A DNA stretch of 64,000 nucleotides, from assembly GCA_951812535.1 (NCBI GenBank), contig CATOSK010000006.1:496001-560000 (forward strand), written 5' to 3'. Within the stretch, counting starts at the first letter, position 1, and each line of letters starts with the position of its first letter. The position numbers were made by a program, and so were the translations under genes. Below the pieces are notes generated by a model that was not told the origin of the DNA, made no database searches, and was given only the letters and a program-made list of their open reading frames with translations. This DNA is from an uncultured Dehalococcoidia bacterium. GTDB lineage: Bacteria; Chloroflexota; Dehalococcoidia; Lucifugimonadales; UBA3495. This document shows, one piece after another, positions 31,084 to 59,904 of the stretch.

Positions 31084-31296
31084 CCCCGTCCGGAAAAGCC
31101 GTTTCCGGCGGGCAAAATTAACTGCCGGAAGGTTATCAGATGGGGGCCGGTTTTGGTAGGGGCCGGAGGGCGGGGGAGGGAGATTGGGGAGTCGTCGCGG
31201 GGGGTGACGTGGGGGTGCGTTGGGGGATTCATCCCCCAAACCCCCTTTCCTTAGATAGAGGGGTTGATTGGGAAGGGGGACGACGGGGTGGGGGAG

Positions 31297-31302
31297 TATA
31301 AT
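31297..31302 (+). promoter_or_regulatory. -10 box for the restriction-modification gene; leaderless start likely
   Basis: TATAAT ends only six bases before the ATG at 31309, so transcription would begin at or next to the start codon. No ribosome-binding site is present between them. Confidence 0.5.
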
Positions 31303-31308
31303 TCGCTC

Positions 31309-32520
31309 ATGCCTTCTTACCCGCACATTGAGAAGTATCACGCCGACCTGGAGCGGTTCATTGAGTTCGGCGGGTCGGACAACGAGCAGAGTATCCGGCG
31401 GGCGTTCGCGGAGTGCCTGGACTCGTACTGCCGGGACCACCGGGAGCGTCTGGCGCTGGTGGACGAGCTGAGCGCGCCGCTGAGCAACCGGCCCGACGGC
31501 ACGGTGAAGGACTCGCTGCGGATGGCGCGGGGGTACTGGGAGGCCAAGGATTCCCACGACGACCTGGACGCGGAGATACAGGCCAAGTTCAACCGGGGGT
31601 ACCCCAGGGACAACATCATCTTCGAGGACTCGCAGACGGCGGTGCTGGTGCAGAACGGCAGCGAGGCGATGCGGGTGGACATGGGCCGGGACGGGGAGCT
31701 GCACCGGCTGATCCGGGTGTTTCTCGATTACGAGCTGCCGGAGATCCAGGAGTTCCGGCAGGCGCAGGGGCAGTTCAAGGCGGACCTGCCGACGGTCCTG
31801 GAGAACCTGAGGGCGACGGTGGCCGAGGCGGAGGCGGAGAACCCGGATTACCAGGAAGCGGCGGCGGCGTTCCTGGAGCTGTGCCGGAAGACCATCGGCC
31901 CCGCCGTCTCCCCCGCCGACGTGCGGGAGATGCTGCTCCAGCACATCCTGACGAAGGACATCTTCCTGCGGGTGTTCGCGGAGGACCAGTTCCACCGGGA
32001 GAACAACGTGGCGCGGCAGCTGGACGGGCTGGAGCGGACGTTCTTCACCGGGGACGTGCGGCGGCAGGCCATTGACCGGCTGCGGGCCTACTACGGGGTC
32101 ATCGGAAGGGCGGCGGACGAGATCGCGGACCACGCCGAGAAGCAGCAGTTCCTGAAGGTGGTCTACGAGGACTTCTACACGGCGTACAACCCGGCGGCGG
32201 CGGACCGGCTGGGAGTGGTCTACACGCCCAACGAGGTGGTGGACTTCATCATCCGGGGAGCGGACCACCTGCTGCAAAAGCACTTCGGGAAGACGCTGGC
32301 GGACGACAACGTGCAGATACTGGACCCGGCGACGGGGACGGGGACCTTCGTGACGAACCTGATCAACTACCTGCCCGCTGACCACAGTATATTTAGGTTT
32401 GGGTTGTCCCCGTCCCATGATCCAGCAGGGATGGACCTCGCGATTAAATTGCCCTCTAAGTTGAGGTACGTTGGTACTGTTTTCCAACAAAGGCGGGTTC
32501 GGGAGTTTCTCGGTTTTTGA
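31309..32520 (+). pseudogene. Type IIG/ISP-like restriction-modification enzyme, N-terminal fragment
   Basis: The first ~360 residues look like the start of a large single-chain restriction-methyltransferase. A PD-(D/E)XK-type nuclease region (GYWEAKDSHDDLDAEIQAKF) is followed by a helical connector and the start of an adenine-specific methyltransferase domain, with VYTPNEVVDFII and motif I DPATGTGTFVTNLINYLP. Right after motif I the similarity stops (about 32385) and the frame runs for some 44 residues through unrelated, AT-richer sequence to a stop at 32520. The catalytic NPPY-type motif and target recognition domain are missing here; a C-terminal piece lies at 33894-34442. The enzyme is almost certainly inactive. 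Confidence 0.85.
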
Positions 32521-32554: not shown

Positions 32555-32998
32555 TTAGGCTGACCGTTGGCGGCCCATGTAACGCATCACCTGCCCGTAT
32601 TCTTGCCCTTCTAACTCAGTGGGGCTCTCGTGCTCAATGTCTTCCGCTGCTCCAAGTTTGCTGGTCCACCAGCCGTTGGGGAGTTGGCGTGCCATATGCT
32701 TTACTTTATCGTCTTTGACATATATGGCAACTTTCTCGACATCTTGCTCCAAATCACCGCCCGTGCATGGTTCATACCCAAGCGTCCGGAAGGCGTCCTC
32801 AAATGTCGAAACGTCTTCCGAGTTCCTTTTTGTCAGAGGCCAGTAGGAACGTTGCCCTTGTGGCCACCACCAAGCATTGGCACTTCCTGCTGCCCAAGCA
32901 ATACAGTTGTATATGCGGGCACGAGGGCTTGTAACACGAAAACTCTCGAGTTGATCAAAGAGGCCGAATACGTTATTGGGTCGGGGGGAGGTAGCCAT
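32555..32998 (-). CDS. DUF7689-like protein (possible papain-like fold)
   Basis: This 147-residue protein contains YNCIAWAAGSANAWWWP, a central FRTLGYEPCTGGDLEQDVEK and KHMARQLPNGWWTSKLG followed by DIEHE. The pattern of Cys in NCIAWA and His in KHMARQL recalls NlpC/P60- or papain-like hydrolases, but that is inference from motif order only. It resembles the family I remember as DUF7689. It is the last gene of a three-gene minus-strand cassette and overlaps the stop of the preceding gene by 26 bases. Base composition is clearly less GC-rich than the neighbourhood. Confidence 0.7.
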   Translation of the reverse strand: MATSPRPNNVFGLFDQLESFRVTSPRARIYNCIAWAAGSANAWWWPQGQRSYWPLTKRNSEDVSTFEDAFRTLGYEPCTGGDLEQDVEKVAIYVKDDKVKHMARQLPNGWWTSKLGAAEDIEHESPTELEGQEYGQVMRYMGRQRSA

Positions 32999-33443
32999 TG
33001 GATTCGCCCCAATCGACCCACTTCGCGCTCAATCTCAATAAGTCCCCGTCATCACCTTCCAGAGGCGGTGGCGTATCCACCAACGAATCCAGGGCCATGA
33101 ACCACCAATCTGGGTCAATGACCAGTTCCCGGAGGATCAATGGGACGACCGCCTGCCCCATGCTGATGATTTCTTGGTATGCGCCGTGGCCCTCTATATC
33201 TGACAACGACGACATATGAATGGTCTCTGCCTTCCAACGCTCCGCCAGTGTTTTGAATTTGTCACATAGTAGGACATCAAAAGTTTGCCCCAAGAAACCT
33301 GAGGAAATTGTGCTTGCGCCTCCGGCCGCGACTTTGCTAGTCTGCAGCAAAATTTCCTCGGCGAAGTTACAGCAGCTAAGATCGGAAGACTCGGTGGTGA
33401 TGGATTTCGAATCCGTGAACTTTATTGTTCCTGCGGCTACCAT
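32973..33443 (-). CDS. Uncharacterised protein, middle gene of the inserted cassette
   Basis: This 156-residue protein starts at ATG 33443, directly after AAGGAGGAGG, one of the strongest ribosome-binding sites in the window; a longer frame to 33527 is not preferred. The C-terminal half has a conserved-looking layout: FKTLAERWKAETIHMSSLSD, then AYQEIISMGQAVVPLILREL and DPDWWFMALDSLVDTPPP. I recall this C-terminal block as a recurrent uncharacterised family often next to DUF7689-type proteins; the association cannot be checked here. It begins 13 bases after the upstream gene and overlaps the downstream one, so the three genes are co-translated. Confidence 0.7.
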   Translation of the reverse strand: MVAAGTIKFTDSKSITTESSDLSCCNFAEEILLQTSKVAAGGASTISSGFLGQTFDVLLCDKFKTLAERWKAETIHMSSLSDIEGHGAYQEIISMGQAVVPLILRELVIDPDWWFMALDSLVDTPPPLEGDDGDLLRLSAKWVDWGESNGYLPPTQ

Positions 33444-33456
33444 TACAACCTCCTCC

Positions 33457-33750
33457 TTAGCTCCAAAAGACATCCCAATCTTCTCGAGGAATCTGCATCT
33501 GTGCCAAGACTTGTGTGGGCACATCACACCTCACTCCCTGAGATTGCTCATATTGTAGTACTTGTCGTCTGAGTATAAAGACCATGGCTTTTAGGTGCTC
33601 GGTGCTCATTCTTACAGTGCCCAGACGTTCTGGTTGCTTGATTGACGTTGCTTCTGGATGGGCCTCTCGCAATTGGAAGCTCATACTAGATCCCCAAGCA
33701 CCTACCGTCACGGTAAACGCGTCGGCAAAAATCTCGAAAGGCTCTGGCAT
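33457..33750 (-). CDS. Small DUF3467-like protein, first gene of the inserted cassette
   Basis: This 97-residue protein starts at ATG 33750 after AGAGGTG. It reads as a beta-rich N-terminal part (FADAFTVTVGAWGSSMSFQL) followed by VRMSTEHLKAMVFILRRQV and QYE. That order resembles DUF3467 proteins (strands, then an 'MSPxHAK' helix, then YE). Its function is unknown. It leads the cassette with the two genes downstream; the upstream base composition (33750-33890) is AT-rich and may hold the promoter. Confidence 0.65.
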   Translation of the reverse strand: MPEPFEIFADAFTVTVGAWGSSMSFQLREAHPEATSIKQPERLGTVRMSTEHLKAMVFILRRQVLQYEQSQGVRCDVPTQVLAQMQIPREDWDVFWS

Positions 33751-33893: not shown

Positions 33894-34442
33894 TTGGCCC
33901 AACCCAACCAAGAGCAAGTGAGTGACGCTGTGCCGGGATTGGCCTCCCGGCAGGAATACGCGGTGGACCTGCTGCGGGAGTTTCCGCGGCTCCCCCTCTA
34001 CCCCGACTCTCACCGCTGGGCGGAGATGGGGCAACGGCTATTGGACCTGCACATCGGGTTCGAGGCGGTGGAGCCGTACCCGCTGGAACGGATGGACCGG
34101 GAGGTGGTTGATCCGAAGCGGGCCATCCTGCGGGCGGACCGGGAGCGGGGGACGATAACGCTGGATGAGCGGACGACGCTGGCGGGGGTGCCGGCGCGGG
34201 CGTGGGAGTACCGGCTGGGGAGCCGGTCGGCGCTGGAGTGGGTGCTGGACCAGTACAAGGAGAAAAAGCCCCGCGATCCGACTATCCGGGAGCGGTTCAA
34301 CAGCTACCGGTTTTCCGACCACAAGGAGGGGGTGATCGACCTGCTGGGGCGGGTGTGCCGGGTGAGCGTGGAGACGATGGAGGTGGTGGACGGGATGGCG
34401 CAGCAGGAGCGGGGGTCTGGATTCCCGCCTGCGCGGGAATGA
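33894..34442 (+). pseudogene. Restriction-modification enzyme, C-terminal fragment
   Basis: From about 33940 the frame encodes the end of the same large restriction-modification enzyme: RQEYAVDLLREFPRLPLYPD, later ALEWVLDQYKEKKPRDPTI, RFNSYRFSDHKEGVIDLLGR and VCRVSVETM. The middle of the enzyme, several hundred residues including the methyltransferase catalytic motif, is absent from the window. The frame ends by running into a dRS3-like repeat, whose translation supplies the last residues (GSGFPPARE). Confidence 0.82.
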
Positions 34443-34622: not shown

Positions 34623-34913
34623 ATGCTTAAGAATCCCGCCGTCTATATGCTGGCCAACGGTCGCAACGGAACGCTTTACGTTGGCGTGACGTCGAACCTG
34701 GCGGAAAGGGTCTGGCAGCACAAGAGCAACGCGTCCGACGGATTTACAGCCAGGTTCGGTGTTCACTACCTGGTATGGTATGAATTCCACGAGACTATGG
34801 AGCAGGCGATTGCCCGGGAGAAGGCCCTGAAGAAATGGAGGCGGAAATGGAAGGTGCGGGTTGTTGAGTTATTCAATCCGGGGTGGGATGACTTGTTTCC
34901 TGACGTTTGTTGA
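34623..34913 (+). CDS. Stand-alone GIY-YIG nuclease domain protein
   Basis: This 96-residue protein is a complete small GIY-YIG domain of the UPF0213/YhbQ-like type. The pattern is AVYMLANGRNGTLYVGVTSN (GIY reads VYM, YIG reads YVG), the catalytic Arg in LAERVWQHK, then the Glu in MEQAIAREKALKKWRRKWKV. Members of this group occur in many genomes, often in several copies and in mobile contexts; some cleave DNA, others have lost activity. It stands between repeat elements. Confidence 0.9.
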   Translation: MLKNPAVYMLANGRNGTLYVGVTSNLAERVWQHKSNASDGFTARFGVHYLVWYEFHETMEQAIAREKALKKWRRKWKVRVVELFNPGWDDLFPDVC

Positions 34914-36420: not shown

Positions 36421-36451
36421 AAACGGACCAAGAGACTTCCCAGGAGATTTG

Positions 36452-36814
36452 ATGCAGTCCCAGACCTACCAGGACTCCGGCCGCCAGTTGCTGACACAGG
36501 CCAACCGGGAATTGTTTGCCGGCGATGTTCGCCAGGCCTCGGAGAAGGGCTGGGGCGCTGCGGCCCAGATGGTCAAGGCCATAGCCGAAAACCGGGGCTG
36601 GCCGCACAACAGCCATTTCCTCCTGCGTCAGGCTGTGGCCAGGCTGGTCGAAGAAACCGGAGACCAGGAGATATTCAATCTCTTCGGCGTAGCGTCCAGC
36701 CTCCACGTAAACTTCTACGAAAACTGGTCTCCGGCGGAGGAAATCCGGGCCGGCCTCCAAGACATGGAGCGCTTCCTGGACAAGCTGGAGCCGCTGCTGG
36801 AGCGGCAAGGCTGA
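36452..36814 (+). CDS. PaREP1/HEPN-like small helical protein, paralogue 2
   Basis: This 120-residue protein starts at ATG 36452, five bases after AGGAGA (a TTG one codon earlier is less likely). It shares FAGDVRQASEKGWGAAAQMV and SSLHVNFYENW with the paralogues at 15392 and 39543. It is probably an all-helical PaREP1-type protein of the HEPN fold group. No R-X4-6-H nuclease motif is present. It is placed in an apparent operon with the luciferase-like monooxygenase upstream and the serine hydrolase five bases downstream, so it may be co-expressed with metabolic genes. Confidence 0.78.
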   Translation: MQSQTYQDSGRQLLTQANRELFAGDVRQASEKGWGAAAQMVKAIAENRGWPHNSHFLLRQAVARLVEETGDQEIFNLFGVASSLHVNFYENWSPAEEIRAGLQDMERFLDKLEPLLERQG

Positions 36815-39542: not shown

Positions 39543-39926
39543 TTACAACCCCGCCAGCCGCTCCGCGTCGCGAATGTAGTCCTGGGTGCCCCGGATCACC
39601 CGCAACGTGTCGTCCACCGGGTCGCAACGGTGCGAATAGAAGCAGTCCCCGTGCAGGTGCATCTGCCGCGCATAGTAACGGCCCCGCAACGACTCAGCGG
39701 AACGATCCGCATGGATGAGGTTCCGCAATTCCTGGGAGGTCTCCCGGCTGGTCTCCGGTTCCCTTCCCGTCCGGGCGAGGATCAACGCGTCCGTGGCCCG
39801 CTTGGTGGCTCCCCAAGCCTTTTCCGCCGCATCCCTCACATCCCCCGCATCAAACCTCTCGATGGCCTGGTCGTAGAGCTGCTGCGCGTCGTCGAAGATC
39901 TCCCGTACACCGGACGCTAGAGTCAT
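39543..39926 (-). CDS. PaREP1/HEPN-like small helical protein, paralogue 3
   Basis: This 127-residue protein shares FDAGDVRDAAEKAWGATKRA and QMHLHGDCFYSH with the two other PaREP1-like proteins, but is more diverged in its middle part (LARTGREPETSRETSQELRN). It is helical throughout and lacks a membrane segment. The strand is opposite to the other two paralogues, and it is flanked by repeats on both sides. Function unknown; the PaREP1/HEPN assignment rests on the shared motif. Confidence 0.75.
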   Translation of the reverse strand: MTLASGVREIFDDAQQLYDQAIERFDAGDVRDAAEKAWGATKRATDALILARTGREPETSRETSQELRNLIHADRSAESLRGRYYARQMHLHGDCFYSHRCDPVDDTLRVIRGTQDYIRDAERLAGL

Positions 39927-53781: not shown

Positions 53782-54479
53782 CCTCCCGTCCTTCCCAGGC
53801 TGCGCTCGATTACCCGGTCATAAATATCCGTGAACGCTTCCTCAATCACGTTGGGATGAATGCCCAGGTAATCGCTGGACGTATGACACTCTATTTCCCC
53901 GTCTTTCTCCCGCCGGCAAAGGGAATGAAAAGCGACTGCATCGCCGTTGGCGATTTGAAGGTCGATTTCCTTGAGGATCCCATAGTCATGCGTAGCCAAA
54001 AATACTTGCACCCCATTCCGTTGCAGTTCGAGAAGCACCTTTATCGCCAAGCGGTACAGCTTTGGGTTCAAGTTCGTCTCCGGTTCATCCCAGAACAGCA
54101 CCGACCCTCCGGCCAGGCTTCCGTTCCGTATCAGCATCCAGAGCAGGGCCAGCTTTCGCAGACCTTCCGCAAAGAGCGAAAACTCCAGGGTACCTTGCTG
54201 GTTGTCCAAGAAGAACTCTTCCCCTTGGACACTGACCTTGCCCCCCATTGCCGCTTCTAGTTCACGAAGCAAGCTTGCAAGAGCGTCCGGCTCCTTTCGC
54301 AGGGCTGGGAGATACGCCCGGTCCAGAATGTCCGCGTATACCTCCTCAAAATGGACATGGCGGCTGGCGTAAAGGGACCTGAAGCCGGGGGCGTTGGCCA
54401 GCATCTCCTTCACCGGGATATACACACTGTCCACTTTCGTGCCGATCCAAGCCGCACCCCGCTTTTCCAGATGCGCTAG
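53778..54479 (-). pseudogene. AAA ATPase, C-terminal fragment (interrupted by insertion elements)
   Basis: This 233-codon fragment continues the ATPase begun at 59556-59904. It encodes the helical middle and the distal catalytic motifs: QGTLEFSLFAEGLRKLALLW (signature-like), Walker B LFWDEPETNLNPKL, and the H-loop FLATHDYGILKEID, as in the AAA_21/OLD-type ABC-like ATPases. The first CTAG (54476-54479) is one copy of the target duplication. When joined to the N-terminal piece over a single CTAG, the frame is restored without gain or loss, giving 348 residues. Its stop overlaps the start of the PD-(D/E)XK-like gene. Confidence 0.85.
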
Positions 54480-55887
54480 TACTACAGTCGCAGATTAAGA
54501 ACAGGTAGAATTGGAGCAGTTGTCTGGTGGAGAGGTGAGGCAGTGGTTGTTGGGAGTGATGAGGTTGCGGAAGTGGCCCGGTGGGCCAATGGCATCGAGG
54601 AGATGCACCAGTGCATCGCCGGCCGGTTCCGGCGGCCGGAGCCGCGCCGCCGGGCTCTGGCCTATCTGCGAGGACTACTCAGCCCGGTGGAACGCAAGAA
54701 CGGCTGGCAACTGGCAGAACAAGCTGGCGACGCCACCCCCTATGGGGTACACCACCTGCTGTCCACGTACATCTGGGACGCGGACCTGGTACGCGATGAC
54801 CTCAGGGACTACGTGGTGGAGCATCTGGGCGGTGCCGACGGAGTAGTGGTGGTGGACGAGACGGGGTTTCTCAAGAAGGGCGACAAGTCAGCCGGGGTGC
54901 AGCGGCAGTACAGCGGGACGGCGGGCCGGATCGAAAACTGTCAGGTTGCGGTGTTCCTGGCCTATGCCGGAGCCAAGGGCAGGGCATTGCTGGACCGGGA
55001 GTTGTACCTGCCCCGGGTGTGGGCGGACGACTGGGAGCGGCGGCGGGAAGCCGGAGTGCCGGAGAGTGTCCGCTTCCGTACCAAACCGCAACTGGCGCAA
55101 CTGATGCTGGGGCGGGCGCTGGAAGCGGGTGTTCCCTTCGCCTGGTTTACTGGGGACGAGGTCTACGGCAGTGATCGCAACCTGCGGCTGTGGCTGGAAC
55201 GTGAGGAGATTCCGCATGTGATGGCCATCAAGAGCAACGAGAAGCTGTGGGCTTTGACGGACAAAGGACCGCTGCAGATGAGAGCGGACCGTCTGGCGTC
55301 CGGGGTTGCGGAATCCGCTTGGGTGCGGTGCAGCGCTGGGAATGGCGCCAAGGGACCACGGATCTATGATTGGGCCGCAGTGGACATACGGCCCCTGAGG
55401 GAACCGGGCAAGGGCCACTGGCTACTGGCCCGCCGGAGCATCGCCAAGCCCGACGAGTTGGCCTATTACGTTTGCTTCGGCCCGGCGGAGACGGCCTTGG
55501 AGGAGTTGGTGAGAGTCGCCGGGACCCGGTGGGCCATAGAGGAATGCTTTGAGCAGGCGAAGGGGGAGGTGGGACTGGACCAGTACGAGGTGCGGCGGTG
55601 GGACGGCTGGTACCGGCACATCACCCTGGCCATGCTGGCTCACGCCTATCTGATGGTAATCAGGCATCATGCATTGGAGCAGGGAGAAAAGGGGGCCACT
55701 ACGGTCCCGGTGAAGAGTTGATTCCCGTGACTGTCCCGGAGGTGCGGCGGCTACTCACACGCTTGGTATGGACAGAGAACCAACCACCGGATTTCATCCT
55801 GTACTGGTCGTGGTGGAGACGCCGCCACCAGGCCAGAGCCCAACGATGTCACTACAAACGGCGTCTATCAAATCTGCGACTGTAGTA
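54480..55887 (+). mobile_element. IS701-type insertion sequence, copy 1 (1408 bp)
   Basis: The element begins TACTACAGTCGCAGATT and ends with the exact inverse, AATCTGCGACTGTAGTA. It is flanked by CTAG on both sides (54476-54479 and 55888-55891), in keeping with the 4-bp YTAR-type target duplications of the IS701 family. One transposase gene fills most of it. Confidence 0.92.
54543..55721 (+). CDS. IS701-family transposase, copy 1
   Basis: This 392-residue DDE transposase starts at GTG 54543. Landmarks are VVVVDETGFLKKGDKSAGVQ (first Asp), the RIENCQVAVFLAYA strand, PFAWFTGDEVYGSDRNLRLW (second Asp) and RWAIEECFEQAKGEVGLDQY (Glu). This is the IS701/DDE_5 pattern. It is intact. The remaining 160 bases before the right end have no gene. 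The same reading is found at two further positions in the window with no amino-acid difference that I can see. Confidence 0.95.
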   Translation: MVVGSDEVAEVARWANGIEEMHQCIAGRFRRPEPRRRALAYLRGLLSPVERKNGWQLAEQAGDATPYGVHHLLSTYIWDADLVRDDLRDYVVEHLGGADGVVVVDETGFLKKGDKSAGVQRQYSGTAGRIENCQVAVFLAYAGAKGRALLDRELYLPRVWADDWERRREAGVPESVRFRTKPQLAQLMLGRALEAGVPFAWFTGDEVYGSDRNLRLWLEREEIPHVMAIKSNEKLWALTDKGPLQMRADRLASGVAESAWVRCSAGNGAKGPRIYDWAAVDIRPLREPGKGHWLLARRSIAKPDELAYYVCFGPAETALEELVRVAGTRWAIEECFEQAKGEVGLDQYEVRRWDGWYRHITLAMLAHAYLMVIRHHALEQGEKGATTVPVKS

Positions 55888-55891
55888 CTAG

Positions 55892-57299
55892 TACTACAGT
55901 CGCAGATTAAGAACAGGTAGAATTGGAGCAGTTGTCTGGTGGAGAGGTGAGGCAGTGGTTGTTGGGAGTGATGAGGTTGCGGAAGTGGCCCGGTGGGCCA
56001 ATGGCATCGAGGAGATGCACCAGTGCATCGCCGGCCGGTTCCGGCGGCCGGAGCCGCGCCGCCGGGCTCTGGCCTATCTGCGAGGACTACTCAGCCCGGT
56101 GGAACGCAAGAACGGCTGGCAACTGGCAGAACAAGCTGGCGACGCCACCCCCTATGGGGTACACCACCTGCTGTCCACGTACATCTGGGACGCGGACCTG
56201 GTACGCGATGACCTCAGGGACTACGTGGTGGAGCATCTGGGCGGTGCCGACGGAGTAGTGGTGGTGGACGAGACGGGGTTTCTCAAGAAGGGCGACAAGT
56301 CAGCCGGGGTGCAGCGGCAGTACAGCGGGACGGCGGGCCGGATCGAAAACTGTCAGGTTGCGGTGTTCCTGGCCTATGCCGGAGCCAAGGGCAGGGCATT
56401 GCTGGACCGGGAGTTGTACCTGCCCCGGGTGTGGGCGGACGACTGGGAGCGGCGGCGGGAAGCCGGAGTGCCGGAGAGTGTCCGCTTCCGTACCAAACCG
56501 CAACTGGCGCAACTGATGCTGGGGCGGGCGCTGGAAGCGGGTGTTCCCTTCGCCTGGTTTACTGGGGACGAGGTCTACGGCAGTGATCGCAACCTGCGGC
56601 TGTGGCTGGAACGTGAGGAGATTCCGCATGTGATGGCCATCAAGAGCAACGAGAAGCTGTGGGCTTTGACGGACAAAGGACCGCTGCAGATGAGAGCGGA
56701 CCGTCTGGCGTCCGGGGTTGCGGAATCCGCTTGGGTGCGGTGCAGCGCTGGGAATGGCGCCAAGGGACCACGGATCTATGATTGGGCCGCAGTGGACATA
56801 CGGCCCCTGAGGGAACCGGGCAAGGGCCACTGGCTACTGGCCCGCCGGAGCATCGCCAAGCCCGACGAGTTGGCCTATTACGTTTGCTTCGGCCCGGCGG
56901 AGACGGCCTTGGAGGAGTTGGTGAGAGTCGCCGGGACCCGGTGGGCCATAGAGGAATGCTTTGAGCAGGCGAAGGGGGAGGTGGGACTGGACCAGTACGA
57001 GGTGCGGCGGTGGGACGGCTGGTACCGGCACATCACCCTGGCCATGCTGGCTCACGCCTATCTGATGGTAATCAGGCATCATGCATTGGAGCAGGGAGAA
57101 AAGGGGGCCACTACGGTCCCGGTGAAGAGTTGATTCCCGTGACTGTCCCGGAGGTGCGGCGGCTACTCACACGCTTGGTATGGACAGAGAACCAACCACC
57201 GGATTTCATCCTGTACTGGTCGTGGTGGAGACGCCGCCACCAGGCCAGAGCCCAACGATGTCACTACAAACGGCGTCTATCAAATCTGCGACTGTAGTA
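55892..57299 (+). mobile_element. IS701-type insertion sequence, copy 2 (1408 bp)
   Basis: This copy follows copy 1 in the same orientation with only CTAG (55888-55891) between. The junction IR-CTAG-IR is a perfect 38-base palindrome (55871-55908). Its right end is followed by CTA (57300-57302) and the IS5-family element. Confidence 0.92.
55955..57133 (+). CDS. IS701-family transposase, copy 2
   Basis: Its translation is the same as that of copy 1 (392 residues, DDE motifs intact). Its upstream region begins right at the IR-IR junction, so it may be read from any promoter made by that junction or by transcription from copy 1. Confidence 0.95.
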   Translation: MVVGSDEVAEVARWANGIEEMHQCIAGRFRRPEPRRRALAYLRGLLSPVERKNGWQLAEQAGDATPYGVHHLLSTYIWDADLVRDDLRDYVVEHLGGADGVVVVDETGFLKKGDKSAGVQRQYSGTAGRIENCQVAVFLAYAGAKGRALLDRELYLPRVWADDWERRREAGVPESVRFRTKPQLAQLMLGRALEAGVPFAWFTGDEVYGSDRNLRLWLEREEIPHVMAIKSNEKLWALTDKGPLQMRADRLASGVAESAWVRCSAGNGAKGPRIYDWAAVDIRPLREPGKGHWLLARRSIAKPDELAYYVCFGPAETALEELVRVAGTRWAIEECFEQAKGEVGLDQYEVRRWDGWYRHITLAMLAHAYLMVIRHHALEQGEKGATTVPVKS

Positions 57300-57370
57300 C
57301 TAGGGAGTGTCGTCAAAACAATGAGAGGGTGATAGATTGGTGCGAGTTGGGAGAGTGTGGAAGGTGGGGT

Positions 57371-57745
57371 ATGAAAGCAGCGCACCGGCGCCACGATATG
57401 AGTGATGCCGTTTGGGAGCGATTGAGGCCGCATCTGCCCGGTGGAGAGGGCAAGCAGGGAAGACCAGCCAACGACAACCGGCGGTTCGTCGACGCCGTGT
57501 GCTGGATTCTGCGAACCGGTTCCCCTTGGCGGGATTTGCCGCCGGACTACGGAGACTGGAAGAACACTCACCGGCGCTTCTGCCGCTGGCGGGACCGGGG
57601 GGTGTGGGCTGGACTGTTGGAGGCGGTGATGGATGACCCTGATTTCGAATGGCTGATGATCGATGCCAGTTACATCAAGGCCCATCCCCACAGTGCCGGG
57701 GCCCGGGGCGGAAATCAGTCCATCGGCCGCACAAAAGGGGGCTGA
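57371..57745 (+). CDS. IS5-family transposase, ORF A
   Basis: This 124-residue frame holds the DUF4096-like N-terminal domain (MSDAVWERLRPHLPGG, FVDAVCWILRTGSPWRDLP) and the first catalytic Asp (LMIDASYIKAHPHSAGA). It ends at a TGA right after a run AAAA-GGGGG (57733-57741). A -1 slip there would continue into ORF B, a known strategy of the IS427 group. Confidence 0.88.
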   Translation: MKAAHRRHDMSDAVWERLRPHLPGGEGKQGRPANDNRRFVDAVCWILRTGSPWRDLPPDYGDWKNTHRRFCRWRDRGVWAGLLEAVMDDPDFEWLMIDASYIKAHPHSAGARGGNQSIGRTKGG

Positions 57746-58134
57746 ACAGCAAGCTGCACTTGGCGGTGGATTCCCACGGAATGCCGGTAAGGCTGGCGGT
57801 CACCGAGGGTACGGTAGCCGACTCCTCCCAGGCATTGCCCCTGATTGAGGGTATAGAGGCGGAGTACCTGCTGGCGGACAAAGCGTACGACACCAATGAA
57901 ATCATAGCTTCGGCCCTGGAATTGGGACTGGACCCGGTGATACCACCGAAAAGGAACCGGAGAGAAAAGCGGGACTACGACCAGGCGCTGTACAAGTTGC
58001 GGCACTTGGTGGAGAACGGTTTCTTGGATTTCAAACAGTGGCGCGGCGTGGCAACCCGTTATGCCAAGAAAGCAGCGTCATACTTGGCCATCTGCCAGCT
58101 AAGGGCAGTGATGATCTGGAGCAAACTCTTTTGA
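57649..58134 (+). CDS. IS5-family transposase, ORF B
   Basis: This frame overlaps ORF A and provides the rest of the DDE domain from about 57742: LNSKLHLAVDSHGMPVRLAV, YLLADKAYDTNEII (second Asp) and LRHLVENGFLDFKQWRGVAT (Glu). It has no good start of its own in the used part and is probably made only as a frameshifted ORF A-B fusion of about 250 residues. Confidence 0.85.
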   Translation: MADDRCQLHQGPSPQCRGPGRKSVHRPHKRGLNSKLHLAVDSHGMPVRLAVTEGTVADSSQALPLIEGIEAEYLLADKAYDTNEIIASALELGLDPVIPPKRNRREKRDYDQALYKLRHLVENGFLDFKQWRGVATRYAKKAASYLAICQLRAVMIWSKLF

Positions 58135-58147
58135 CGACACCCCCTAG

Positions 58148-59555
58148 TACTACAGTCGCAGATTAAGAACAGGTAGAATTGGAGCAGTTGTCTGGTGGAG
58201 AGGTGAGGCAGTGGTTGTTGGGAGTGATGAGGTTGCGGAAGTGGCCCGGTGGGCCAATGGCATCGAGGAGATGCACCAGTGCATCGCCGGCCGGTTCCGG
58301 CGGCCGGAGCCGCGCCGCCGGGCTCTGGCCTATCTGCGAGGACTACTCAGCCCGGTGGAACGCAAGAACGGCTGGCAACTGGCAGAACAAGCTGGCGACG
58401 CCACCCCCTATGGGGTACACCACCTGCTGTCCACGTACATCTGGGACGCGGACCTGGTACGCGATGACCTCAGGGACTACGTGGTGGAGCATCTGGGCGG
58501 TGCCGACGGAGTAGTGGTGGTGGACGAGACGGGGTTTCTCAAGAAGGGCGACAAGTCAGCCGGGGTGCAGCGGCAGTACAGCGGGACGGCGGGCCGGATC
58601 GAAAACTGTCAGGTTGCGGTGTTCCTGGCCTATGCCGGAGCCAAGGGCAGGGCATTGCTGGACCGGGAGTTGTACCTGCCCCGGGTGTGGGCGGACGACT
58701 GGGAGCGGCGGCGGGAAGCCGGAGTGCCGGAGAGTGTCCGCTTCCGTACCAAACCGCAACTGGCGCAACTGATGCTGGGGCGGGCGCTGGAAGCGGGTGT
58801 TCCCTTCGCCTGGTTTACTGGGGACGAGGTCTACGGCAGTGATCGCAACCTGCGGCTGTGGCTGGAACGTGAGGAGATTCCGCATGTGATGGCCATCAAG
58901 AGCAACGAGAAGCTGTGGGCTTTGACGGACAAAGGACCGCTGCAGATGAGAGCGGACCGTCTGGCGTCCGGGGTTGCGGAATCCGCTTGGGTGCGGTGCA
59001 GCGCTGGGAATGGCGCCAAGGGACCACGGATCTATGATTGGGCCGCAGTGGACATACGGCCCCTGAGGGAACCGGGCAAGGGCCACTGGCTACTGGCCCG
59101 CCGGAGCATCGCCAAGCCCGACGAGTTGGCCTATTACGTTTGCTTCGGCCCGGCGGAGACGGCCTTGGAGGAGTTGGTGAGAGTCGCCGGGACCCGGTGG
59201 GCCATAGAGGAATGCTTTGAGCAGGCGAAGGGGGAGGTGGGACTGGACCAGTACGAGGTGCGGCGGTGGGACGGCTGGTACCGGCACATCACCCTGGCCA
59301 TGCTGGCTCACGCCTATCTGATGGTAATCAGGCATCATGCATTGGAGCAGGGAGAAAAGGGGGCCACTACGGTCCCGGTGAAGAGTTGATTCCCGTGACT
59401 GTCCCGGAGGTGCGGCGGCTACTCACACGCTTGGTATGGACAGAGAACCAACCACCGGATTTCATCCTGTACTGGTCGTGGTGGAGACGCCGCCACCAGG
59501 CCAGAGCCCAACGATGTCACTACAAACGGCGTCTATCAAATCTGCGACTGTAGTA
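58148..59555 (+). mobile_element. IS701-type insertion sequence, copy 3 (1408 bp)
   Basis: Same ends, length and orientation as copies 1 and 2. It is preceded by TAG (58145-58147) left from the spacer CTAG split by the IS5-family element, and followed by CTAG (59556-59559), the distal target duplication. Confidence 0.92.
58211..59389 (+). CDS. IS701-family transposase, copy 3
   Basis: The 392-residue translation is the same as in copies 1 and 2 and intact. Lack of visible divergence between the three copies indicates very recent amplification or gene conversion. Confidence 0.95.
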   Translation: MVVGSDEVAEVARWANGIEEMHQCIAGRFRRPEPRRRALAYLRGLLSPVERKNGWQLAEQAGDATPYGVHHLLSTYIWDADLVRDDLRDYVVEHLGGADGVVVVDETGFLKKGDKSAGVQRQYSGTAGRIENCQVAVFLAYAGAKGRALLDRELYLPRVWADDWERRREAGVPESVRFRTKPQLAQLMLGRALEAGVPFAWFTGDEVYGSDRNLRLWLEREEIPHVMAIKSNEKLWALTDKGPLQMRADRLASGVAESAWVRCSAGNGAKGPRIYDWAAVDIRPLREPGKGHWLLARRSIAKPDELAYYVCFGPAETALEELVRVAGTRWAIEECFEQAKGEVGLDQYEVRRWDGWYRHITLAMLAHAYLMVIRHHALEQGEKGATTVPVKS

Positions 59556-59904
59556 CTAGGGCAATAGATTGGCCCGGGCCCTGACTTGATTGCGCCCGGC
59601 TGGAAAACGAGGTTTCAATGCTAGTTTCGCCCAACCAGACCTCGACCCTTCCAGTACGGCCCCCTTCCCCTATTTTTACCAATCGACCGCCACTGCCTCC
59701 CGAAGGCATGAAGACCTTAACCAGCTTGTCGGCGAAACCCTCCCCCGAATTGGACACCTCACAAGCCGCGTAGCACACCTTCATCAGGTGAGTCTTTCCC
59801 GTACCGTTGGCTCCCACCAGAACGTTGATCCCAGGAGAAACCTCCAGGTCAAGCTCTTCAAAAGCGGTAAATCGCTCCAGCTTCACCCTGGTGAGCGTCA
59901 TCAT
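59556..59904 (-). pseudogene. AAA ATPase, N-terminal fragment (interrupted by insertion elements)
   Basis: This fragment starts at ATG ATG (59904/59901; the second has GAGGAG at better spacing) and encodes TLTRVKLERFTAFEELDLEV. The P-loop follows in LVGANGTGKTHLMKVC. It is typical of SMC/RecF-like AAA_21/AAA_15 ATPases found in OLD-type and other defence modules. Removing the inserted 5 kb (three IS701 and one IS5 element) rejoins it with 53778-54479 in frame. In its present state the translation ends inside the IS701 inverted repeat. Confidence 0.85.

What the first reader, a model, noticed from the sequence alone, without database searches (positions are those of the whole stretch)
32555..33750. 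Compact co-translated triad: DUF3467-like, uncharacterised, DUF7689-like
Seen: three small minus-strand genes with spacing of 13 bases and an overlap of 26, strong AAGGAGGAGG before the middle gene, and low GC. The last protein has NCIAWA and KHMARQL, which could be the Cys and His of a papain-like hydrolase; the middle one has a helical block with GMG/SMGQ and DPDWWFMAL. Tight coupling implies a stoichiometric complex. As far as I recall the second and third families often neighbour each other, but no function is known. Inside a broken restriction gene this is a good candidate for an undescribed accessory (defence, toxin-antitoxin or protein-modification) system.
Basis: partly seen in the sequence, partly recalled or inferred. 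Interest (0 to 1): 0.66.

Follow-up and report, generated by a model that had tools for sequence, protein, structure and literature searches.

The report
Three-gene toxin-antitoxin-like cassette with papain-like toxin
Three tightly packed genes look like a portable poison-and-antidote kit: a predicted papain-like enzyme (the poison), its ever-present partner (the antidote), and an exchangeable third protein that probably decides when the antidote holds; the pair turned up together at all 100 places found, sometimes with the antidote fused onto a restriction enzyme.

Summary
The three minus-strand genes are real, with the stated 13-base gap and 26-base overlap, in a low-GC block (51.7% against 63.6%) that splits a type ISP restriction gene. 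The last gene is DUF7689 (Pfam E 7e-40). Its predicted fold is confident and resembles papain/NlpC-P60 enzymes; Cys32, His101 and His123 are invariant in 80 aligned sequences. The middle protein carries an unnamed ~95-residue all-helical domain ('MF'). MF lies directly upstream of DUF7689 at 80 of 80 genome loci across many phyla and at 20 of 20 viral-labelled loci. MF can sit behind Phd/YefM or ribbon-helix-helix antitoxin domains, or on the C-terminus of several kinds of restriction enzyme. In relatives, DUF7689 is often broken while MF stays intact, never the reverse. The first gene is a distant DUF3467 relative; its homologues precede other toxin-antitoxin-like pairs, while TIGR04255 and three unnamed families fill its slot beside MF. 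MF has an N-terminal extension wherever such a partner was detected. Best reading: a tripartite toxin-antitoxin system that works like TAC modules, with a non-SecB third component and a papain-like toxin. Toxicity, enzyme activity and complex formation are untested.

The parts
33457..33750 (-). Gene 1: 97 aa, distant DUF3467 relative; proposed third component (chaperone- or sensor-like)
   Evidence: ORF; hhalign to DUF3467 93.5-97.7%; homologues L178-L180 and L222 precede other toxin-antitoxin-like pairs
32973..33443 (-). Gene 2: 156 aa MF protein, proposed antitoxin
   Evidence: ORF; no hit in Pfam, PADLOC, PHROGs or NCBIfam; conserved family
32976..33263 (-). MF domain, all-helical, conserved C-terminal part of gene 2
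   Evidence: alignments A2 and A4; per-block pLDDT mostly 87-96 over residues 61-150
33264..33443 (-). N-terminal extension of gene 2 (60 aa), not conserved; proposed contact site for the third component, analogous to a chaperone-addiction (ChAD) region
   Evidence: pLDDT mostly 48-58; an extension over 30 aa is present in 38/38 loci with a detected partner gene and in 15/26 without
32555..32998 (-). Gene 3: 147 aa DUF7689 (PF24738), proposed papain-like toxin
   Evidence: Pfam E 7.2e-40; pLDDT 91.8; papain-like fold matches
32903..32905 (-). Codon of Cys32 (proposed nucleophile, first residue of helix 32-36)
   Evidence: 80/80 Cys; helix position
32696..32698 (-). Codon of His101 (proposed catalytic base, in strand 98-105)
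   Evidence: 80/80 His
32630..32632 (-). Codon of His123 (invariant, possible third catalytic residue)
   Evidence: 80/80 His
31264..32520 (+). N-terminal fragment of the disrupted type ISP restriction-modification gene (homology ends near 32390)
   Evidence: ISP_coupler and N6_Mtase; PADLOC REase_MTase_IIG positions 6-358 of 1024
33894..34442 (+). C-terminal fragment of the same restriction gene
   Evidence: Type_ISP_C E 4.2e-30; positions 859-1012 of 1024

Best explanation
The locus is a horizontally acquired, tripartite toxin-antitoxin-like cassette. DUF7689 (gene 3) is a cytosolic papain-like Cys/His enzyme that harms the cell when free, most likely by cutting or modifying an essential protein. 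MF (gene 2) is its dedicated antitoxin: the ~95-residue helical domain binds and blocks DUF7689. The N-terminal extension of MF makes it depend on the DUF3467-like protein (gene 1), as SecB-like chaperones control antitoxins in known TAC modules; stress or phage infection that draws off gene 1 would expose MF to proteolysis and free the enzyme. Where MF is fused to a restriction enzyme, that enzyme would itself carry the antidote, so that its loss or inactivation frees the toxin. Shown here: gene anatomy, strict MF-DUF7689 pairing, papain-like predicted fold with invariant Cys/His, asymmetric decay, exchangeability of the third component, restriction-enzyme fusions. Inferred: toxicity, inhibition by MF, action of gene 1, trigger and substrate.
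For: (1) Obligate pair: MF is in the ORF directly upstream of DUF7689 at 80/80 loci found with DUF7689 alone, at 20/20 viral-labelled loci and in 4/4 DUF7689 genomes of a 400-genome phylum sample; MF and DUF7689 distances correlate (r 0.587, best of 2000 permutations 0.193). (2) Asymmetric decay: within the window's family all 14 intact DUF7689 genes have an intact MF, whereas 12 of 26 intact MF copies (10 loci) have a broken or absent DUF7689. (3) Antitoxin context: Phd/YefM or DUF6364 hits at MF N-termini, a FitA-like RHH gene directly upstream in one locus. (4) Fold: pLDDT 91.8, top structural matches AvrPphB (Z 5.7), NlpC/P60, Cpe1 toxin 9l5u (Z 5.2), Tse1, staphopain; Cys32, His101, His123 invariant. 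(5) Modularity: gene 1 homologues precede a DUF4258 + zinc-finger pair, a PHD_like antitoxin pair and a ParE/YafQ-like pair; TIGR04255 precedes MF-DUF7689 (22 loci) but also HEPN-like and other pairs; partner labels change at least 26 times on the pair tree. (6) MF extension over 30 aa in 38/38 loci with a detected partner against 15/26 without (Fisher p 1e-5). (7) In TAC modules a ChAD extension on HigA, HicB or MqsA antitoxins confers dependence on a SecB-like chaperone and can be transferred (PMC5105189), and phage capsid protein can draw off the chaperone (PMC11618068).
Against: No experiment shows toxicity or neutralisation. Foldseek found no match at E <= 0.001, and the best Z of 5.7 is below the level at which a single match is telling; the case rests on the uniformity of the list. 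No coordinates were available to measure the Cys-His distance. Gene 1 and the other partner families show no detectable sequence kinship to SecB. ChAD regions are C-terminal; this extension is N-terminal (although an N-terminal graft of ChAD also worked in PMC5105189). Some MF proteins have long extensions without a detected partner. The decay counts are not phylogenetically independent and draft assemblies can hold false frameshifts. Several of the toxin-antitoxin assignments in (5) have weak E-values.
Confidence: 0.57

Rival explanations
1. Two-component toxin-antitoxin only: MF and DUF7689 are toxin and antitoxin, and the upstream gene is not a chaperone but a transcriptional co-regulator or passenger that MF acquires for regulation.
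For: Stand-alone MF (~103-118 aa) with no detected partner occurs in about 11 loci; Phd- and RHH-type domains at the MF N-terminus would serve autoregulation.
Against: The partner families are mostly not DNA-binding by any library hit; the MF extension goes with the partner; the ATGA coupling of TIGR04255 and MF is nearly constant.
Confidence: 0.2
2. Abortive-infection or guard effector: DUF7689 is a defence effector held off by MF, and the variable part (third gene or the fused restriction enzyme) is a sensor of phage or of restriction-enzyme inhibition, so the system is primarily anti-phage rather than an addiction or stress module.
For: MF is fused to the C-termini of several restriction-modification architectures; one upstream gene is an AAA_15/AAA_21 ATPase that also matches PtuA and a restriction-associated ATPase model; CmdTAC shows a TAC module acting this way (PMC11618068).
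Against: No PADLOC model matches the three proteins; most loci have no restriction enzyme fused; no enrichment near defence genes was measured. This is compatible with the best explanation and differs mainly in purpose.
Confidence: 0.3
3. Maturation or housekeeping pair: DUF7689 is a specific peptidase or amidase whose substrate or adaptor is MF, without toxicity.
For: A papain-like fold alone does not imply a toxin; MF lies upstream and is always present.
Against: Patchy distribution (4 of 400 phylum genomes), lower GC than the flanks in 94% of 47 loci, at least 32 phylum changes on the tree, one-sided decay and antitoxin-type fusions do not fit a housekeeping role.
Confidence: 0.12

Closest known systems
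TAC (toxin-antitoxin-chaperone) modules, e.g. M. tuberculosis HigBA1-SecB(TA); CmdTAC
   Same: Three small co-directional genes; a constant toxin-antitoxin pair plus a third protein; antitoxin with a variable partner-associated extension; third component shared between different toxin-antitoxin families (MqsRA, HicAB, HigBA in PMC5105189; DUF4258 + zinc finger, PHD_like and ParE/YafQ-like pairs here).
   Different: Third component is DUF3467-like, TIGR04255 or unnamed, with no detectable similarity to SecB; the extension is N-terminal; the toxin is papain-like instead of an RNase or ADP-ribosyltransferase; the antitoxin domain is unnamed.
Papain-like cysteine protease toxins such as Cpe1 (PMC12136450; PDB 9l5u)
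   Same: Predicted papain-like fold of similar size, paired with a small inhibitor gene.
   Different: Cpe1 is delivered to rival cells by T6SS or CDI; DUF7689 is a stand-alone small cytosolic protein with no delivery domain in the ORFs read; no sequence similarity to solved structures.
Restriction-modification guard systems (PrrC with EcoprrI; from general knowledge, not tested here)
   Same: A toxic effector coupled to a restriction enzyme so that loss of the enzyme could free it.
   Different: Here the antitoxin domain itself would be fused to the restriction enzyme, and the effector fold differs.
Pfam PF24738 DUF7689
   Same: Gene 3 is a member (E 7.2e-40).
   Different: Family has no described function; no paper in the held library names it.

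Membership tests
DUF7689 (PF24738) | Score above the curated cut-off over the whole domain | tested here: met
   136.8 bits against 22.6; profile positions 1-117 of 118
DUF3467 (PF11950), for gene 1 | Score above the Pfam cut-off | tested here: not met
   No hit at E <= 1; only profile-profile similarity, 93.5-97.7%: a distant relative, not a member
Papain-like cysteine peptidase fold (clan CA / NlpC-P60-like), for gene 3 | Papain-like alpha/beta fold | tested here: inconclusive
   Confident model (pLDDT 91.8); list dominated by papain-like chains, best Z 5.7; no Foldseek hit at E <= 0.001
Papain-like cysteine peptidase fold (clan CA / NlpC-P60-like), for gene 3 | Conserved Cys at a helix N-terminus and conserved His | tested here: met
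   Cys32 opens helix 32-36; Cys32, His101 and His123 in 80/80; spatial closeness not measurable here
Type II toxin-antitoxin system | Two adjacent, co-directional small genes in an obligate pair | tested here: met
   80/80 and 20/20
Type II toxin-antitoxin system | Toxin retained only with its antitoxin | tested here: met
   14/14 intact DUF7689 with intact MF; 12/26 intact MF without intact DUF7689; not phylogenetically independent
Type II toxin-antitoxin system | One protein toxic, the other neutralises by binding | not testable with these tools
   No experiment and no complex prediction
TAC module | Third gene encodes a SecB-like chaperone | tested here: not met
   SecB against P1 by hhalign 0.1-0.2%; sequence level only, fold of gene 1 not modelled
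TAC module | Antitoxin carries a chaperone-addiction extension tied to the third component | tested here: inconclusive
   Extension present in 38/38 loci with a detected partner against 15/26 without, but N-terminal and of untested function
Known anti-phage defence system | Match to a PADLOC model | tested here: not met
   No PADLOC hit for genes 1-3

The most novel reading that the evidence does not exclude
A general, undescribed class of tripartite systems: several exchangeable, non-SecB control proteins (DUF3467-like, TIGR04255, at least three unnamed families) each plug through an antitoxin extension into many different toxin-antitoxin cassettes, and one such cassette (MF-DUF7689, with a papain-like toxin) has also been fused onto restriction enzymes so that the enzyme is its own antidote-bearing guard.
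Probability: 0.35. Interest if true: 0.85.

Novelty: new variant of a known kind. Interest (0 to 1): 0.64.

Why it matters
If right, it gives a testable function to DUF7689, TIGR04255 and the close relatives of gene 1, none of which has a described role in the held library; adds a papain-like enzyme to the intracellular toxins; shows that chaperone-addiction-like control is not limited to SecB; and suggests that restriction enzymes can carry an antitoxin domain as a built-in guard.

Tried and rejected
Gene 1 as a plain DUF3467 member: no Pfam hit. SecB kinship of gene 1, TIGR04255 and the other partners: none by hhalign. MF fold: no clear solved match (best Z 5.0 to a helical-repeat protein), and no sequence relative of MF or DUF7689 in the PDB (the top DUF7689 rows are tau repeats, chance). 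Plasmid and phage records: no tblastn match for DUF7689; weak sensitivity, since IMG/VR contigs did hold 20. Literature: no paper names DUF7689 or TIGR04255; one unrelated paper names DUF3467. Ends of the inserted block: no convincing terminal or target repeats. A common motif in MF extensions: none seen beyond closely related loci. Searches read minus-strand loci in the wrong orientation and were replaced. One search failed on a wrong frame. More distant gene-1-like proteins (in family f72 and others) do not sit beside toxin-antitoxin pairs, so the claim is limited to close homologues. Considered and dropped: enrichment beside defence genes, for want of a baseline.

Full report
OBSERVATION. 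The three ORFs are on the minus strand at the stated place: gene 1 33457-33750 (97 aa), gene 2 32973-33443 (156 aa), gene 3 32555-32998 (147 aa), with a 13-base gap, a 26-base overlap and AAGGAGGAGG before gene 2. The block has 51.7% GC against 63.6% for the window and sits between two fragments of a plus-strand type ISP restriction-modification gene that lacks about 500 residues. So it looks like a horizontally gained insert with a deletion; no boundary repeats were found.

WHAT THE PARTS ARE. Gene 3 is DUF7689 (PF24738, E 7.2e-40). Gene 2 has no hit in Pfam, PADLOC, PHROGs or NCBIfam, but its last ~95 residues form a conserved domain, here called MF. Gene 1 has no library hit; profile-profile comparison relates it to DUF3467 (93.5% for the close family, 97.7% with more distant members) and not to SecB (0.1-0.2%).

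MF AND DUF7689 ARE AN OBLIGATE PAIR. A scan of about 85,000 species genomes with DUF7689 alone gave 80 loci in Chloroflexota, Cyanobacteriota, Planctomycetota, Pseudomonadota, Nitrospirota, Nitrospinota, Acidobacteriota, Verrucomicrobiota, Myxococcota and others. In all 80 the upstream neighbour on the same strand carries MF (in L087 both genes look damaged). In IMG/VR 20 of 20 loci have it. In a 400-genome sample of the window's phylum, DUF7689 occurs in 4 and MF in the same 4 plus one cut by a contig end (adjacency seen in the fetched regions). Sequence distances of the two proteins correlate (r 0.587; best of 2000 permutations 0.193). Phylum labels need at least 32 changes on the pair tree, and the pair has lower GC than its flanks in 94% of 47 loci: the pair moves horizontally as a unit.

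POLARITY. In the window's own family (a record in it, L135 = G025, is titled uncultured Dehalococcoidia), 14 intact DUF7689 genes all have an intact MF; of 26 intact MF copies, 12 (at 10 loci) have a frameshifted, truncated, interrupted or absent DUF7689. This one-sided decay is what one expects if DUF7689 is harmful and MF protects. The counts are not phylogenetically independent.

FOLD OF DUF7689. AlphaFold2 with 80 sequences gave pLDDT 91.8. Foldseek alone found no PDB match at E <= 0.001. Realignment ranked AvrPphB (Z 5.7), NlpC/P60 enzymes, the Cpe1 papain-like toxin (9l5u, 5.2), Tse1 and staphopain; nearly the whole list of 50 is papain-like. Each Z is low on its own; the uniformity is the argument. 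Cys32 starts a helix; His101 lies in strand 98-105; Cys32, His101, Trp111, Ser113, Lys114 and His123 are invariant in 80 sequences. The scan pattern contained the NCxA motif, so Cys conservation in that set is partly by selection; the histidines were not in the pattern, and profile-found relatives also keep the Cys. I could not measure the Cys-His distance.

WHAT SITS BEFORE MF. The N-terminal part of MF proteins varies. Some have Phd/YefM (3 library hits; 9 loci by eye, one clade) or RHH-type (DUF6364) domains. Some are the C-terminus of restriction enzymes of at least four architectures: Mrr_cat_2 + ResIII helicase; type ISP; type ISP-like without helicase; HSDR_N + N6_Mtase (+ specificity domain). 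Many follow a separate partner gene, usually with an ATGA overlap: TIGR04255 (22 loci), and three unnamed families of about 110-140 aa (5), 90-100 aa (5) and 225-240 aa (6); gene 1 of the window is the only DUF3467-like one in this set. MF proteins with a detected partner all have an extension of 45-171 residues; of 26 without, 11 have 30 or fewer (Fisher p 1e-5). Partner type changes at least 26 times on the pair tree.

THE THIRD COMPONENT IS EXCHANGEABLE. Close gene 1 homologues in other genomes precede other pairs: DUF4258 + a zinc-finger protein (L180), a PHD_like antitoxin + a small protein (L179), a similar pair (L178), and a ParE/YafQ-like toxin with its small neighbour (L222) (some of these assignments are weak). 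TIGR04255 likewise precedes HEPN-like proteins, HTH-bearing proteins with another effector, and more.

MECHANISM. This is the logic of TAC modules, in which a SecB-like chaperone protects an antitoxin through a variable ChAD extension that can be moved between HigBA, HicAB and MqsRA (PMC5105189), and in which phage capsid protein can draw the chaperone away so that ClpP destroys the antitoxin (PMC11618068). I propose that gene 1 supports MF through its extension, that MF blocks DUF7689, and that loss of gene 1's support frees a papain-like enzyme that attacks an essential protein, as the delivered toxin Cpe1 does with GyrB/ParE (PMC12136450). Anatomy, pairing, decay and modularity are shown; toxicity, binding, trigger and substrate are inferred. 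By membership it is not a TAC module: no SecB-like protein is detectable. It works like one in architecture.

VERDICT. New variant of a known kind.

Noticed in passing
54476-59561: Three identical copies of an insertion sequence with a 392-aa DDE_5 transposase (54543-55721, 55955-57133, 58211-59389); about 1.42 kb identical on both strands of comparison, the first two head to tail.
   Followed up: partly
34623-34913: Small GIY-YIG domain ORF (E 2.5e-16) right after the C-terminal fragment of the broken restriction gene.
   Followed up: no
36449-36814 (+) and 39543-39926 (-): Two PaREP1-family proteins (E 6.6e-21 and 5e-9), a family named from Archaea, on either side of a beta-lactamase-like gene and a DUF4238 gene.
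   Followed up: no
L229, L231-L237, L240-L242: TIGR04255 behaves as a modular upstream partner of several unrelated small gene pairs (HEPN-like, HTH + 'QGDFL' proteins, 'RR..P' proteins) in Chloroflexota.
   Followed up: partly
L020-L026, L134, L135, L138, L183: The MF domain is fused to the C-terminus of restriction-modification enzymes of at least four architectures, with DUF7689 immediately downstream.
   Followed up: partly
L027:5855-6497: Two MF genes in tandem without any DUF7689 (G012); two tandem MF copies with a broken DUF7689 in L188 (G065): possible orphan antitoxins.
   Followed up: no
L283-L285: Divergent MF-DUF7689 pair of low GC on what looks like a genuine phage contig with an exonuclease-like neighbour.
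   Followed up: no
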